Source: an uncultured Sphingorhabdus sp.
GTDB lineage: Bacteria; Pseudomonadota; Alphaproteobacteria; Sphingomonadales; Sphingomonadaceae
Length of the DNA stretch: 10,934 bases
NCBI GenBank assembly: GCA_937873665.1
Contig: CALMYW010000458.1
Span: forward strand, 1-10,934
Direction: 5' to 3'
This document shows positions 2,497 to 8,689 of this stretch, in pieces. The position numbers and the translations under genes are program-made. The notes below the pieces were generated by a model, which was given only the letters and a program-made list of their open reading frames with translations, searched no databases and was not told the DNA's origin. Each line of letters starts with the position of its first letter. Within the stretch, counting starts at the first letter, position 1.

Positions 2497-3706
2497 CCGC
2501 AACCGGATTTCGAGCGTTCGATTCAAGTCCTGGGTTCGAGATGCGTTGGGGGATGGTGCTTACCGGACGATTGCGGAAGCGTACAGATACGCATCACGGC
2601 GCCCGTTACCCAGGGTGCGCCGCTCGAAACTCTATGATGTCGTGTTCTACTGCGAACAGCCCAGCCACTGGCAGAACATTGAACTCGTTGTCGGCCGACT
2701 CCTCTCCGAGATGCCTTGGCTAAAGGTTCGTTTAGTGACGACTTATGACAGCGACGATTATCGAGGTGTGAATTACCCCGCCGAGTTGAAGGTGGATTTT
2801 GGAATCCCAAAGTCGGAACTTAGTCATCTGAATACGCGTATTCTCTTCACGCCGTACGTGGGATTAGCTCGTGTATTGCGGCCCAAAGAAGCGATCGTCG
2901 TCCATGCACTGGTTTCGCTCACTGGCCTTGACGGCGTATATTCGCCTGAAATGTTTGACAACTACGACTTTATCGTATGCGCTGGTCCACATCATATCCG
3001 AGACTTTCAAAGATGGGCGGATAGCAATTCCCATCTGAGGGGTAAGGTTCTCGTTGCGGCAGGGTATCCCAAACTGGATCTCACGATCCGCCGGGTCGGG
3101 GAGATGCCTACTCCCGACTCGGACGCCTTCACAGTTGTATATGCGCCTACTCATGTTTATGCAGTCAACGAAAAACTTGCATCCCTTCGAGCTCATGGAG
3201 ATTTGATTGTAGACGCACTGCTGGCGGCGGGTTTTGAGGTGATCTTTAGGCCTCACCCGGAGTCGTTCAATGACGCCGATAAGTGTATAATCCAGCGAAT
3301 TCTCGAGCGACATAAACTGAACGAAAAGTTCCGCATAGACCGGTCCAAGAATTATATGGAAACCTATGCGAAGGCCGATTTAATGGTGACAGACTTGTCG
3401 GGGACGGGTTTCACCTTCAGTCTGTCCTTTCTGCGCCCTACTATTTTCTTCGCAGCCGACGAGATCGCCGAACAGGGTCTGCGCGGAATCCAATTTGAGG
3501 ATCGGGGTAGAATTGGCGGTTTGGCGCGGTCGGTTCCGGAACTTATTGATGCTATTGGTAGGATTCGGGTGTCAGGCACTCCAGAAGACATCTTGAGATA
3601 TCGCGAGCAGACTGTATTTAATGTGGGGTCAAGTGCCGATAGCGTCGCCTCAACGCTATCGGCACTTTTCGATGGCAAGTGGGGCAGCGAGTGGATAAAG
3701 CTGTGA
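2468..3706 (+). CDS. CDP-glycerol glycerophosphotransferase-like (TagF/TarF-type) transferase
   Basis: This 412-residue soluble-looking protein has the C-terminal GT-B signature of the CDP-glycerol:poly(glycerophosphate) glycerophosphotransferase family: VVYAPTH near 223-229, RPHPE at 261-265 and VTDLSGTGFTFSLSFLRPTIFF from about 307. Family members transfer a phosphoalcohol from a CDP-activated donor to a glycan or teichoic acid hydroxyl and release CMP. The N-terminal 220 residues are not diagnostic. No CDP-glycerol synthesis gene (TagD type) is visible. The next genes instead make a CDP-linked phosphoramidate, so I infer that this enzyme may transfer that group, or join sugars through phosphate, during surface glycan assembly. 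The ATG at 2468 lies inside the acetyltransferase gene with no clear ribosome binding site, suggesting translational coupling. Codon use is more AT-rich than in the transposase. A teichoic-acid-like polymerase is the main alternative. Confidence 0.7.
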   Translation: MERTAGPTISRNRISSVRFKSWVRDALGDGAYRTIAEAYRYASRRPLPRVRRSKLYDVVFYCEQPSHWQNIELVVGRLLSEMPWLKVRLVTTYDSDDYRGVNYPAELKVDFGIPKSELSHLNTRILFTPYVGLARVLRPKEAIVVHALVSLTGLDGVYSPEMFDNYDFIVCAGPHHIRDFQRWADSNSHLRGKVLVAAGYPKLDLTIRRVGEMPTPDSDAFTVVYAPTHVYAVNEKLASLRAHGDLIVDALLAAGFEVIFRPHPESFNDADKCIIQRILERHKLNEKFRIDRSKNYMETYAKADLMVTDLSGTGFTFSLSFLRPTIFFAADEIAEQGLRGIQFEDRGRIGGLARSVPELIDAIGRIRVSGTPEDILRYREQTVFNVGSSADSVASTLSALFDGKWGSEWIKL

Positions 3707-4266
3707 GGCCGGATGAGTCGGACCTGACTGGTCGGGGTGAGGTTTGGTGGATTACCGGACTCTCCGGCGCCGGGAAGTCGACATTGGCGGCCGAGGTAGT
3801 GGCGCGACTGAGGGGGGTGGGGTGCGCCGCGGTACTGCTAGACGGTGATGAGCTACGGGAGGTCTTCGGCGCCTCCGCGGCTAATGCGGATAACCACGGC
3901 CGCGAGGGCAGGCTGGCGCTGGCCATGCAGTATGCGCATCTGTGCCGGGTGATCGCTGGGCAGGGGATTACGGTTGTGATAGCCACAATTTCTCTATTCC
4001 GAGAGGTTCATGCCTGGAATCGACTGAACCTTCCGGGATATTTTGAGGTGTATCTGAAAGTTCCGATTGCAGAACTCCGCCGGCGTGATCCAAAAGGGAT
4101 TTACAGGCGCTTCGATTCCGGTGAGCTAAGAAACGTCGCCGGACTGGACATAGTCGTAGATGAACCGGGGGATGCGGACTGGGTGGTCAATTTTGAGCGG
4201 GGGCAATCGGTTGATGCAGTCGCCGATGAACTATTGATTCGTGTGAAAAGGAGAAATCTGCAATGA
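3703..4266 (+). CDS. Adenylylsulfate-kinase-like protein, probable cytidine diphosphoramidate (CDP-amidate) 3'-kinase
   Basis: The protein has the CysC fold: P-loop GLSGAGKST at about 19-27, DGDE at 47-50, the ISLFREV segment, and RDPKGIY at 128-134. CysC-family enzymes phosphorylate the ribose 3'-OH of a nucleotide. No sulfate activation partner (ATP sulfurylase, PAPS reductase) is present. The genes that follow match the C. jejuni MeOPN pathway, where the CysC-like Cj1415 phosphorylates CDP-amidate, so I infer that role. The start is uncertain: GTG at 3703 gives a 4-base GTGA overlap with the preceding stop, as at two other junctions in this operon, and still leaves the P-loop well inside. 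GTG at 3691 or 3679 would add 4 or 8 residues. The gene overlaps the methyltransferase by ATGA. A true adenylylsulfate kinase is less likely but not excluded by motifs alone. Confidence 0.82.
   Translation: MRPDESDLTGRGEVWWITGLSGAGKSTLAAEVVARLRGVGCAAVLLDGDELREVFGASAANADNHGREGRLALAMQYAHLCRVIAGQGITVVIATISLFREVHAWNRLNLPGYFEVYLKVPIAELRRRDPKGIYRRFDSGELRNVAGLDIVVDEPGDADWVVNFERGQSVDAVADELLIRVKRRNLQ
4248..4253 (+). promoter_or_regulatory. Ribosome binding site AAGGAG for the methyltransferase
   Basis: AAGGAG ends nine bases before the ATG at 4263 and lies inside the end of the preceding kinase gene. It fixes the methyltransferase start and is one of the two strongest Shine-Dalgarno sites in the operon. 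Confidence 0.75.
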
Positions 4267-5012
4267 GGACTGAGTGGGATTACACAACCCTTGCTGACGC
4301 CTACCTGAAGCGGCCAGATTACGCCGACGCGGCCATTGACGCGATGCTGTCGATTGCGGGTCTGGAAGAAGGCGATCACGTCTGCGATGTCGGTGCCGGT
4401 GTCGCGCACCTGACATTGATGCTCGCCGCGCGCAACTTGGAAGTTGTCGCCGTCGAGCCGAATGATGCGATGCGTGCGAATGGAATCAAGCGCACCGGGA
4501 AGTTCTCAGACGTCCGCTGGCATGAAGGTACGGGTGAAGTGACGGGTCAAGCTGACGATTCGTTCGACATGGTGACCTTCGGCAGCTCGTTCAACGTTTG
4601 TGATCGCCAGGCGGCGCTCCGCGAGTCTGCTCGGATCCTCAAGCCGCGCGGGTGGTTTGGGTGCATGTGGAATCACCGACAATTGGACGACCCTATCCAG
4701 GCGCGAATCGAGCAGGTGATCAAAGAGCGGGTCCCAGGTTATGGGTACGGCACGCGCCGTGAGGACCAGACGGCGGAGATAGACGCGTGCGGCTTGTTTG
4801 GACCCGTTGTCCACCTTGACTCAAGGGTCATGCACCAGCAGACCATCGAAGAATGTGTCGAAGCGTGGCGCTCCCATGCGACGTTGGAACGGCAGGCGGG
4901 CGATGCGTTTCCCGGTGTAGTTGGCGAGATCGAGCGCTTCCTGAATGGCCTCCGGACGCCGGCCATTCAAATCCCCTACTCGACCAATATTTGGGTCGCG
5001 CAGTTACGTTGA
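4263..5012 (+). CDS. Class I SAM-dependent methyltransferase, candidate phosphoramidate O-methyltransferase
   Basis: The 249-residue protein has a Rossmann-type SAM domain: motif I VCDVGAGVAHLTL (about 40-52), the acidic VAVEPND (E65), SFDMVTFGSSFN near 100-111 and ILKPRG at 125-130, in the order of Methyltransf_11/25 families. The C-terminal half is poorly conserved and probably binds substrate. It sits between the CDP-amidate-kinase-like gene and the glutamine-kinase-like gene, where C. jejuni carries Cj1419 and Cj1420, the two predicted methyltransferases of O-methyl phosphoramidate synthesis. I therefore infer that it methylates the phosphoramidate oxygen, but the sequence itself shows only that it is a SAM methyltransferase; a sugar O- or N-methyltransferase is possible. 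ATG at 4263 overlaps the previous stop (ATGA) and follows a strong AAGGAG. The next gene starts 12 or 6 bases after its stop. Confidence 0.82.
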   Translation: MRTEWDYTTLADAYLKRPDYADAAIDAMLSIAGLEEGDHVCDVGAGVAHLTLMLAARNLEVVAVEPNDAMRANGIKRTGKFSDVRWHEGTGEVTGQADDSFDMVTFGSSFNVCDRQAALRESARILKPRGWFGCMWNHRQLDDPIQARIEQVIKERVPGYGYGTRREDQTAEIDACGLFGPVVHLDSRVMHQQTIEECVEAWRSHATLERQAGDAFPGVVGEIERFLNGLRTPAIQIPYSTNIWVAQLR

Positions 5013-7963: not shown

Positions 7964-7969
7964 AGCGCA

Positions 7970-8689
7970 ATGAAAGCAATTATTCTTGCGGCTGGGCGCG
8001 GTAGCCGTATGAAGAGTTTGACTGAGGAAAAACCTAAGTGTCTGGTCGAGGTTCGCGGAAAAACCTTGTTGGATTGGCAGATTGACGCTATGCGGGCAGC
8101 CGGAATCCACGATATCGGCATCGTTACGGGATACAAGCGGGAGCTCTTGACAGGGCGTGGACTTGTGGAGTTTCACAATCCGCGGTGGGCCGAAACCAAC
8201 ATGGTCAGTTCTTTAGAATACGCTGGCGAGTGGCTCCGATCGGATTCCTGCATCGTCAGCTATTCGGACATCTTCTACGGGCCCGAAGCCGTGCAATCCC
8301 TCATGCAGTGTTCGGCAGCGCTCGCAGTCACCTTCGATCCGAACTGGCTAAGTCTATGGACGCGGCGATTTGGTGATCCGCTACTGGATGCGGAAACGTT
8401 CCGGATATCTTCGGATTATTACCTGATTGAGATAGGGAATAAGCCGCGTTCCGTCGAGGAGATTGAGGGCCAGTACATGGGCTTGTTGAAATTTACTCCG
8501 GAAGGATGGTCCGAAGTCGCACGTCTTCGTTCAACGCTGAACACAATGGAACGTGACGCGATGCATATGACCGGCACGCTCCAGATGGCTATAGAGGCTA
8601 ATGATGGACTCGCGATTGCGGCAACGCCATACGTGGGCGAATGGGCTGAATTCGACAGTGAAACAGACCTGGATGGCTACTTGGATTAG
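7970..8689 (+). CDS. Sugar-phosphate-type nucleotidyltransferase, probable CTP:phosphoglutamine cytidylyltransferase (Cj1416 type)
   Basis: The 239-residue protein has the NTP-transferase fold. The nucleotide-binding signature LAAGRGSRMKSLT (6-18) continues into KPKCLVEVRGK (21-31), NMVSSL (78-83) resembles LicC-type cytidylyltransferases, and D101 in YSDIFYG and D230 in EFD are the likely metal ligands. The short length and lack of a C-terminal beta-helix fit a CTP-using enzyme such as LicC rather than RmlA or GlmU. In C. jejuni the homologous Cj1416 joins CMP from CTP to phosphoglutamine. The direct partners of that step, kinase and hydrolase, are the two genes upstream, so the same role is inferred. 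The start is supported by a consensus ribosome binding site. A choline-phosphate or sugar-1-phosphate cytidylyltransferase is the alternative. A 91-bp gap follows, the largest within the operon. Confidence 0.83.
   Translation: MKAIILAAGRGSRMKSLTEEKPKCLVEVRGKTLLDWQIDAMRAAGIHDIGIVTGYKRELLTGRGLVEFHNPRWAETNMVSSLEYAGEWLRSDSCIVSYSDIFYGPEAVQSLMQCSAALAVTFDPNWLSLWTRRFGDPLLDAETFRISSDYYLIEIGNKPRSVEEIEGQYMGLLKFTPEGWSEVARLRSTLNTMERDAMHMTGTLQMAIEANDGLAIAATPYVGEWAEFDSETDLDGYLD

What the first reader, a model, noticed from the sequence alone, without database searches (positions are those of the whole stretch)
3703..8689. A complete Campylobacter-type phosphoramidate (P-N bond) pathway in an apparent actinobacterium
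Five adjacent genes belong to the same five families as the C. jejuni MeOPN set: CysC-like kinase (Cj1415), methyltransferase (Cj1419/1420 role), ATP-grasp/phosphohistidine kinase without a PEP barrel (Cj1418, glutamine kinase), class I amidotransferase (Cj1417) and small nucleotidyltransferase (Cj1416). Seen in sequence: active-site motifs of all five are intact and the genes are consecutive. Known: in C. jejuni these enzymes make phosphoglutamine, CDP-glutamine, CDP-amidate and 3'-phospho-CDP-amidate for capsule decoration. Inferred: this organism makes a phosphoramidate-modified surface glycan. Individually the genes would be annotated as APS kinase, PEP synthase, PuuD and LicC, so automatic annotation would miss the system.
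Basis: partly seen in the sequence, partly recalled or inferred. Interest (0 to 1): 0.93.

Follow-up and report, generated by a model that had tools for sequence, protein, structure and literature searches.

The report
Widespread bacterial phosphoramidate-sugar-coat gene cassette
Five neighbouring genes form a conserved cassette that is predicted to attach a rare phosphorus-nitrogen group to bacterial surface sugars, chemistry known in detail from Campylobacter, and relatives with the same gene set lie in bacteria of six phyla, which makes the likely transfer enzymes testable.

Summary
In detail: five intact, consecutive same-strand genes (3679-8689). The reading as a phosphoramidate pathway is well supported. 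The kinase fits NCBIfam PRK05849 over its whole length (994 bits, cut-off 501); the amidotransferase's best family is gamma-glutamyl-CDP-amidate hydrolase (90.6 bits, under that model's cut-off of 250); the CysC lies with 70 other cassette CysCs apart from 17 ordinary APS kinases (SH-aLRT 99). No Campylobacter sequence could be obtained, so no direct comparison was made. The system is not peculiar to this contig: 61 of 80 related loci (six phyla) hold all five genes, 55 in this order. New here: the gene beside the cassette is often one of two unrelated, nearly mutually exclusive candidate transferases, sulfotransferase-like or TagF-like (window: TagF-like, 2468-3706), and 13 of 80 loci carry a CysQ-type 3'-nucleotidase inside the cassette, so phosphoramidate may be handled the way PAPS handles sulfate. 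Window-type TagF genes travel with FdtA/DegT sugar genes (8 of 9 loci), so a 3-amino-3,6-dideoxyhexose or its neighbour is the likely acceptor. The actinobacterial host is unproven: only two IS1380 pieces point to Mycobacteriales, while the glycan genes look proteobacterial. Transfer, methylation and product are inferred.

The parts
2468..3706 (+). TagF-like (PF04464) protein, candidate phosphoramidate transferase; its end overlaps the CysC frame from either listed start
   Evidence: Pfam PF04464 38 bits, cut-off 22.1; 24-member alignment with invariant H146, P227, T228, D309, S311; model pLDDT 87.2, Foldseek best TagF E 8.1e-14, Z tie with UDP-GlcNAc 2-epimerases
3679..4266 (+). CysC-like kinase, predicted CDP-amidate 3'-kinase (Cj1415 role)
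   Evidence: PRK05541 206.7 bits, cut-off 127; apsK TIGR00455 94, under its cut-off 138.7; tree
4263..5012 (+). SAM methyltransferase, predicted to cap the phosphoramidate
   Evidence: Methyltransf_11 52.9 bits; a match near the kinase in 70 of 80 loci, two subtypes of 50 and 20
5025..7337 (+). predicted glutamine kinase (Cj1418 role): ATP-grasp, helical middle, phosphohistidine domain
   Evidence: PRK05849 994 bits, cut-off 501; H727 invariant in 26 of 26; model pLDDT 87.8, closest fold rifampin phosphotransferase
7334..7963 (+). predicted gamma-glutamyl-CDP-amidate hydrolase (Cj1417 role)
   Evidence: best family NF045546 90.6 bits, below its cut-off 250; PuuD-type NF008471 21.6; C107-H184-E186 invariant in 16 of 16
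7970..8689 (+). predicted phosphoglutamine cytidylyltransferase (Cj1416 role)
   Evidence: NTP_transf_3 67 bits; best solved relative CTP:phosphocholine cytidylyltransferase 1jyk E 9.4e-13
1999..2496 (+). hexapeptide acyltransferase, likely N-acetylation of the amino sugar
   Evidence: Hexapep 77.9 bits; matches in 7 of the 9 loci that have FdtA
8778..9218 (+). FdtA/QdtA-type dTDP-4-keto-6-deoxyhexose isomerase
   Evidence: PF05523 168.8 bits; 0 NCBIfam families at E 0.01
9215..10309 (+). DegT-type sugar aminotransferase
   Evidence: PF01041 396.9 bits; best plasmid relative Gemmobacter aquarius 73.4%
10306..10932 (+). start of a membrane protein read by eye as a Wzx-type flippase; runs off the window
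   Evidence: open frame; not tested against a family library
3..1566 (+). IS1380-family element (transposase 92-1489)
   Evidence: NF033539 338.7 bits, cut-off 180; 81.3% DNA identity to Mycobacterium dioxanotrophicus plasmids
1709..1905 (+). fragment resembling a second IS1380-type element
   Evidence: 20 of 20 matching plasmid records are Rhodococcus, Mycolicibacterium, Mycobacterium or Nocardia; several listed matches lie on annotated IS1380 transposases

Best explanation
The five consecutive genes at 3679-8689 are one copy of a conserved cassette that is predicted to turn glutamine, ATP and CTP into an activated phosphoramidate donor, which the overlapping TagF-like gene (2468-3706) would pass to a surface sugar. 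Likely steps: the kinase (5025-7337) phosphorylates the amide nitrogen of glutamine through phospho-H727; the nucleotidyltransferase (7970-8689) makes CDP-glutamine; the amidotransferase-like hydrolase (7334-7963) cuts off glutamate and leaves CDP-amidate; the CysC-like kinase (3679-4266) adds a 3'-phosphate; a transferase moves the phosphoramidate to a sugar hydroxyl and releases 3'-phospho-CMP, which a CysQ-type phosphatase (inside the cassette in 13 of 80 loci, presumably housekeeping elsewhere) would recycle; the methyltransferase (4263-5012) would cap the group. The acceptor is most likely a 3-acylamino-3,6-dideoxyhexose made by the FdtA/DegT/acyltransferase genes next door, or a sugar beside it. 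Shown: gene set, intact motifs, conserved linkage, separation from APS kinases, candidate transferases at the cassette edge. Inferred: every reaction, the acceptor and the surface location. The confidence given is for the donor pathway; for the TagF-like gene as transferase alone I would say about 0.5.
For: Family scores; PRK05849 rings in 0 of 14 control genomes. Cassette conservation: 61 of 80 loci with all five genes in six phyla. In 2 of 2 Magnetococcales genomes the kinase sits beside a sulfotransferase-like gene while NTase-CysC-MT-GAT lie on another contig: separated, yet both kept. Fusions: kinase-amidotransferase in L091 and CysC-kinase in L068. CysC tree: 71 cassette copies on one side of a branch, SH-aLRT 99, against 17 other APS kinases; 4 of 16 genomes have no other PF01583 match at E 1e-10. 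CysQ-type gene between amidotransferase and NTase in 13 of 80 loci; of six scanned, two pass the TIGR01331 cut-off of 228.8 and four score 198-220. Sulfotransferase-like frames abut the cassette in 22 of 24 cases (2.1 expected), TagF-like in 26 of 38 (2.2 expected); without the seeds 15 of 17 and 23 of 35. The two hardly co-occur: 36 long loci, one per family: 1 both, 18 sulfotransferase-like only, 12 TagF-like only, 5 neither, one-sided p 5.2e-5. Window-type TagF genes of at least 36% identity: 9 of 80 loci, 8 with FdtA and DegT, the ninth cut off by the contig end. C. jejuni enzymology as cited in PMC11800397 and PMC10919079 (passages).
Against: No Campylobacter protein was compared. The amidotransferase misses the NF045546 cut-off (90.6 of 250), and at weak thresholds that model also rings in ordinary amidotransferases (14 of 14 control genomes at E 1e-3; 3 of 14 at 1e-10). 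The window has no CysQ and no sulfotransferase-like gene. A TagF-like neighbour could be an ordinary glycan polymerase or phosphate-ester transferase; its fold ties with UDP-GlcNAc 2-epimerases. In 11 of the 38 TagF-like cases the gene lies more than 1.5 kb from the cassette, among them 7 of the 8 FdtA loci whose TagF type is the window's. 9 of 60 long loci have neither candidate. One locus (L040) has an ordinary APS kinase close to its cassette. The methyltransferase role is unproven even in C. jejuni.
Confidence: 0.75

Rival explanations
1. Same donor pathway (so not exclusive of the first half of the best explanation), but the TagF-like gene is a backbone phosphodiester polymerase or another phosphate-ester transferase, and the phosphoramidate transferase lies outside the window.
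For: Best Foldseek and profile relatives are TagF and a TagF-like capsule polymerase; in 7 of the FdtA loci the gene lies about 1.9-2.7 kb from the cassette.
Against: TagF-like genes abut the cassette in 26 of 38 cases and rarely share a locus with the sulfotransferase-like neighbour; in the window the frame overlaps CysC.
Confidence: 0.35
2. A sulfation module lies beside a phosphoramidate or other phospho-ligand module: CysC is a true APS kinase feeding sulfotransferases, with CysQ removing PAP.
For: CysC, CysQ and sulfotransferase-like genes together are the PAPS toolkit; L040 has an ordinary APS kinase near its cassette.
Against: Cassette CysCs separate from 17 other APS kinases, and PF01583 scores in 16 genomes fall into two sets, 86-112 and 167-233 bits; a CysC-kinase fusion exists; CysQ also sits in 7 cassettes whose only candidate transferase is TagF-like; the window has no sulfotransferase-like gene.
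Confidence: 0.1
3. The kinase phosphorylates another amide or amine, and the cassette makes a different CDP-activated P-N or phosphate group.
For: No substrate residues could be compared with Cj1418; the nearest solved folds are rifampin phosphotransferases.
Against: The gamma-glutamyl-CDP-amidate hydrolase family is the amidotransferase's best match by far (90.6 against 45.5 bits), and the kinase-amidotransferase fusion couples the two.
Confidence: 0.12

Closest known systems
Campylobacter jejuni O-methyl phosphoramidate (MeOPN) pathway, Cj1415-Cj1418 with transferases Cj1421/Cj1422
   Same: Same kinds of enzyme in one cluster; predicted steps the same as those reported for Cj1415-Cj1418 (as cited in PMC11800397, passages read; the single reactions recalled).
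   Different: Gene order (C. jejuni order inferred from locus numbers; here CysC-MT-GlnK-GAT-NTase), host range, neighbouring candidate transferases of sulfotransferase-like or TagF-like kind, CysQ inside some cassettes, sugar genes of the FdtA/DegT type. Whether Cj1421/Cj1422 are of either kind was not found out.
PAPS sulfation economy (CysC, sulfotransferases, CysQ)
   Same: 3'-phosphorylating kinase, sulfotransferase-like neighbours, 3',5'-bisphosphate nucleotidase.
   Different: Cassette CysC is a separate group in the tree; the predicted group is phosphoramidate on CDP, not sulfate on AMP.
TagF/TarL CDP-alcohol phosphotransferases (PF04464)
   Same: Family and general fold of 2468-3706; both would move a phospho group from a CDP carrier.
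   Different: Linked to a cassette, with no CDP-glycerol or CDP-ribitol gene recognised in the window; donor predicted to be 3'-phospho-CDP-amidate.
Phosphoramide in LPS of Xanthomonas campestris and Shewanella MR-4
   Same: P-N groups on surface glycans outside Campylobacter (PMC8042644, PMC3210612, passages read).
   Different: No gene link was given in the passages read; whether those strains carry the cassette was not tested.

Membership tests
Campylobacter-type phosphoramidate donor pathway | glutamine kinase of the Cj1418 kind | tested here: inconclusive
   PRK05849 994 bits over cut-off 501, PEP synthase models at most 46.5 bits, but no Cj1418 sequence was at hand and activity is untested
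Campylobacter-type phosphoramidate donor pathway | gamma-glutamyl-CDP-amidate hydrolase by NCBI's curated equivalog cut-off | tested here: not met
   NF045546 is the best family but 90.6 bits is under 250; the best match in each of six cassette-bearing genomes scores 75-93, none over the cut-off
Campylobacter-type phosphoramidate donor pathway | CysC-like kinase distinct from APS kinase | tested here: met
   71 cassette copies on one side of a branch against 17 others, SH-aLRT 99
Campylobacter-type phosphoramidate donor pathway | cytidylyltransferase linked to the kinase | tested here: met
   NTase near the kinase in 74 of 80 loci; CTP use itself untested
Campylobacter-type phosphoramidate donor pathway | transferase homologous to Cj1421/Cj1422 | not tested
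Campylobacter-type phosphoramidate donor pathway | phosphoramidate on the glycan | not testable with these tools
   needs 31P NMR
PEP synthase / pyruvate phosphate dikinase | C-terminal PEP-utilizing barrel | tested here: not met
   only PPDK_N and PEP-utilizers match at E 0.01, the latter at 694-761 of 770 residues
APS kinase (TIGR00455 apsK) | curated apsK cut-off 138.7 | tested here: not met
   94 bits
PF04464 glycerophosphotransferase family (for 2468-3706) | Pfam gathering score 22.1 | tested here: met
   38 bits

The most novel reading that the evidence does not exclude
Bacteria of at least six phyla run a second PAPS-like economy: phosphoramidate is built on glutamine, loaded on CDP, 3'-phosphorylated by a CysC cousin, moved to glycans by sulfotransferase-like or TagF-like enzymes that replace one another, and the spent 3'-phospho-CMP is cleared by a dedicated CysQ; the window's version decorates a 3-amino-3,6-dideoxyhexose glycan and may have jumped into a Mycobacteriales host.
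Probability: 0.5. Interest if true: 0.85.

Novelty: new variant of a known kind. Interest (0 to 1): 0.72.

Why it matters
A 2022 review calls the glutamine kinase C. jejuni-specific (PMC9561416, passage read), and a 2019 review says the methyl form has so far been identified only in Campylobacter (PMC6429109, passage read). Yet 15 of 398 Pseudomonadota and 23 of 298 Pseudomonas species genomes, drawn evenly but each sample including its known centre genome, hold a kinase over the PRK05849 cut-off. If the prediction holds, P-N bonded surface glycans are an ordinary trait of environmental bacteria, relevant to phage binding (many C. jejuni phages recognise MeOPN). Harmless strains could then stand in for the pathogen in working out the transfer step, whose enzymes are assigned by knockout in the passages read, and two concrete transferase families plus a recycling enzyme are named for test.

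Tried and rejected
Own genome: none held. Solved-structure sequence searches of kinase, hydrolase, nucleotidyltransferase and CysC found only distant superfamily members. Viral contigs: no relative; the one phage record with a match (L091) carries bacterial genes (murC-like, thioredoxin reductase-like, read by eye) and looks mislabelled. 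E. coli genomes: no match for 4263-8000 in distant blastn. The TagF-like protein has no tblastn match in the plasmid collection. Long N-terminal extensions ahead of CysC in L040, L075, L050, L032, L069 looked like fusions but are stop-to-stop frames whose extra part has no Pfam domain and were dropped. The upstream proteins of L003 and L056 look sulfotransferase-like by eye, but Pfam gives none (L003) or E 0.027 (L056); neither is counted. A composition proof of host failed: the glycan genes' third-position GC is 0.56-0.70 against 0.86 in the transposase. Papers with phosphoramidate, sulfotransferase and Campylobacter together: 2, by their titles unrelated to the pathway, listing only. Statements about what is not in print rest on the ten searches over open-licence PMC papers; of the papers listed I opened passages of 13 and none in full. 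Two of the original C. jejuni enzyme papers (JACS 2017, Biochemistry 2018) were asked for and not held; that work is cited second hand.

Limits of the counts: the 80 loci are the best of 96 relatives found with six exact peptide patterns of the window's own kinase, so they are its near kin; 20 of the 80 are 15 kb or shorter. Gene presence is the best tblastn match at E 1e-4 whose start lies within 6 kb of the kinase start. The adjacency tests use profiles seeded from 7 sulfotransferase-like and 4 TagF-like proteins (one the window's own) chosen because they lay near a cassette; relatedness inflates the p-values, which is why one-per-family counts are given. The expected adjacency is a rough uniform-placement figure. 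One TagF-like gene (L013) is counted as two frames. The CysC tree is a quick search with long branches (L066, L054 and others); 14 duplicate rows were dropped first. Five GlnK-TagF contig-length coincidences between (0.35 expected, up to 4 in 2000 jittered sets) hint at shared contigs and are not used as proof.

Full report
What is there. The window starts with an IS1380 element (3-1566; transposase 92-1489, NF033539 338.7 bits) and a second IS1380-like fragment (1709-1905), followed by a one-strand glycan cluster: hexapeptide acyltransferase, TagF-like protein, CysC-like kinase, SAM methyltransferase, large ATP-grasp/phosphohistidine kinase, class I amidotransferase, small nucleotidyltransferase, FdtA-type isomerase, DegT-type aminotransferase and the start of a membrane protein. 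The five genes of the finding are intact and consecutive.

PF01583 was sought in 16 genomes that hold a cassette; 34 matches fall into two sets, 17 at 166.6-232.8 bits and 17 at 85.6-112 bits. In a tree of 88 rows, 71 cassette CysCs (window included) lie on one side of a branch with SH-aLRT 99, and 17 others (16 from these genomes and a second, ordinary copy near the L040 cassette) on the other side. Four of the 16 genomes have no other PF01583 match at E 1e-10. So this CysC is not an ordinary APS kinase. No tree was made for kinase or amidotransferase, and no Campylobacter sequence was available for a direct comparison.

How widespread. A scan with the kinase found 96 relatives in the genome collection, of which 80 were kept: 69 Pseudomonadota, 4 Verrucomicrobiota, 2 Bacteroidota, 2 Cyanobacteriota, 2 Planctomycetota, 1 Thermodesulfobacteriota. 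All five genes match within 6 kb in 61 of 80 loci, in the window's order in 55; among 60 loci longer than 15 kb, 52 and 48; each of the six phyla has at least one locus with all five. Of 7995 scored candidates in the large database, 7364 match the kinase at E 1e-3. In evenly drawn samples that include their centre genomes, 15 of 398 Pseudomonadota and 23 of 298 Pseudomonas genomes have it. In two Magnetococcales genomes the kinase and the other four genes are on different contigs, yet both sets are kept. Natural fusions of kinase with amidotransferase (L091) and of CysC with kinase (L068) tie the parts together.

What lies beside it. In many loci the gene just upstream of CysC is sulfotransferase-like (PF00685/PF13469); in others it is TagF-like, as in the window; in some it is neither (a methyltransferase in L002, a radical SAM protein in L037). 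Local profiles found 24 sulfotransferase-like frames in 24 loci and 38 TagF-like frames in 35 loci. 22 of 24 and 26 of 38 lie within 400 bases of the cassette, against about 2 expected each; leaving out the seeds, 15 of 17 and 23 of 35; 11 of the 38 TagF-like frames lie more than 1.5 kb away. The two kinds share one locus only (L030): 60 long loci 1/18/32/9, p 7.7e-8; without Pseudomonas 42 loci 1/18/16/7, p 1.9e-5; one per family 36 loci 1/18/12/5, p 5.2e-5 (both, sulfotransferase-like only, TagF-like only, neither; one-sided). This is what two alternative transferases for one donor would give. In 13 of 80 loci a gene between amidotransferase and nucleotidyltransferase is CysQ-like (in L011 it is split into two frames); of six scanned, TIGR01331 scores are 198-234 against a cut-off of 228.8, two passing. 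CysQ removes the 3'-phosphate of spent PAPS (recalled). Its place in a cassette with a CysC cousin suggests that transfer releases a 3'-phosphonucleotide. It occurs with both transferase kinds.

Host. All 20 plasmid records that match 1560-2000 are Mycobacteriales genera, and the full IS1380 is 81% identical to Mycobacterium dioxanotrophicus plasmids. The glycan genes are closest to Pseudomonadota and differ in composition. Transfer into an actinobacterium, an IS landing in a proteobacterium, or a chimeric contig are all open; no genome is held for the window, and the only 100% match to the kinase is one cluster with a contig of 14,872 bases (P0006, source ena).

Known and new. In C. jejuni, Cj1415-Cj1418 make 3'-phospho-CDP-phosphoramidate from glutamine, ATP and CTP; Cj1421/Cj1422 deletions lose MeOPN from single sugars; Cj1419/Cj1420 knockouts show nothing (PMC11800397, passages read). 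Phosphoramide is also reported in LPS of Xanthomonas campestris and Shewanella MR-4 (PMC8042644, PMC3210612, passages read). In listings and passages of the open-licence library I found no paper placing the cassette outside Campylobacter or naming sulfotransferase-like, TagF-like or CysQ partners; subscription papers were not searchable. I rate it a new variant of a known kind: it works like the Campylobacter pathway, the strict cut-off of the hydrolase family is not met, and transfer, recycling, methylation and product remain to be shown.

Noticed in passing
L091 652-3687 (MT837632.1): Glutamine-kinase and C26 amidotransferase domains fused in one 1011-aa frame, in a record labelled Bacteriophage sp. 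whose other genes look bacterial, perhaps of a gut Firmicute.
   Followed up: partly
L090 4633-7149 (Azospirillum ramasamyi plasmid): 838-aa protein with CysC at its C-terminus and an N-terminal part that reads by eye like a sulfotransferase (P-loop-like start and RNPxDxxxS-like motif), without a Pfam hit or a match to the local sulfotransferase profile there.
   Followed up: partly
L068 5015-8077: CysC and glutamine kinase in one open frame of 1020 aa in a Magnetospirillum MAG.
   Followed up: partly
L027, L048 with L143, L144: Two Magnetococcales genomes keep the kinase beside a sulfotransferase/TPR gene and the other four cassette genes on another contig.
   Followed up: yes
80 loci: The methyltransferase comes in two subtypes (50 loci at 50% identity or more to the window's, 20 loci under 40%), mostly at the same place before the kinase.
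   Followed up: no
L046 (Pseudomonas sp. CFII64): Second cassette in the same contig as L006, with CysC and nucleotidyltransferase matched only over short pieces and no amidotransferase found: apparently decaying.
   Followed up: no
L040 6092-6778: An ordinary APS kinase (it falls with the housekeeping set in the tree) lies near the cassette of Rugamonas rubra.
   Followed up: no
window 1-1905: Two IS1380-type pieces of Mycobacteriales type side by side, the second a fragment; the window begins at the left end of the first, a common place for contigs to break.
   Followed up: partly
plasmids collection: 43 Phaeobacter and 3 Leisingera plasmid records hold a PEP/pyruvate-binding-domain protein; the six such rows listed are only 24-27% identical to the kinase, apparently a different phosphohistidine family.
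   Followed up: no
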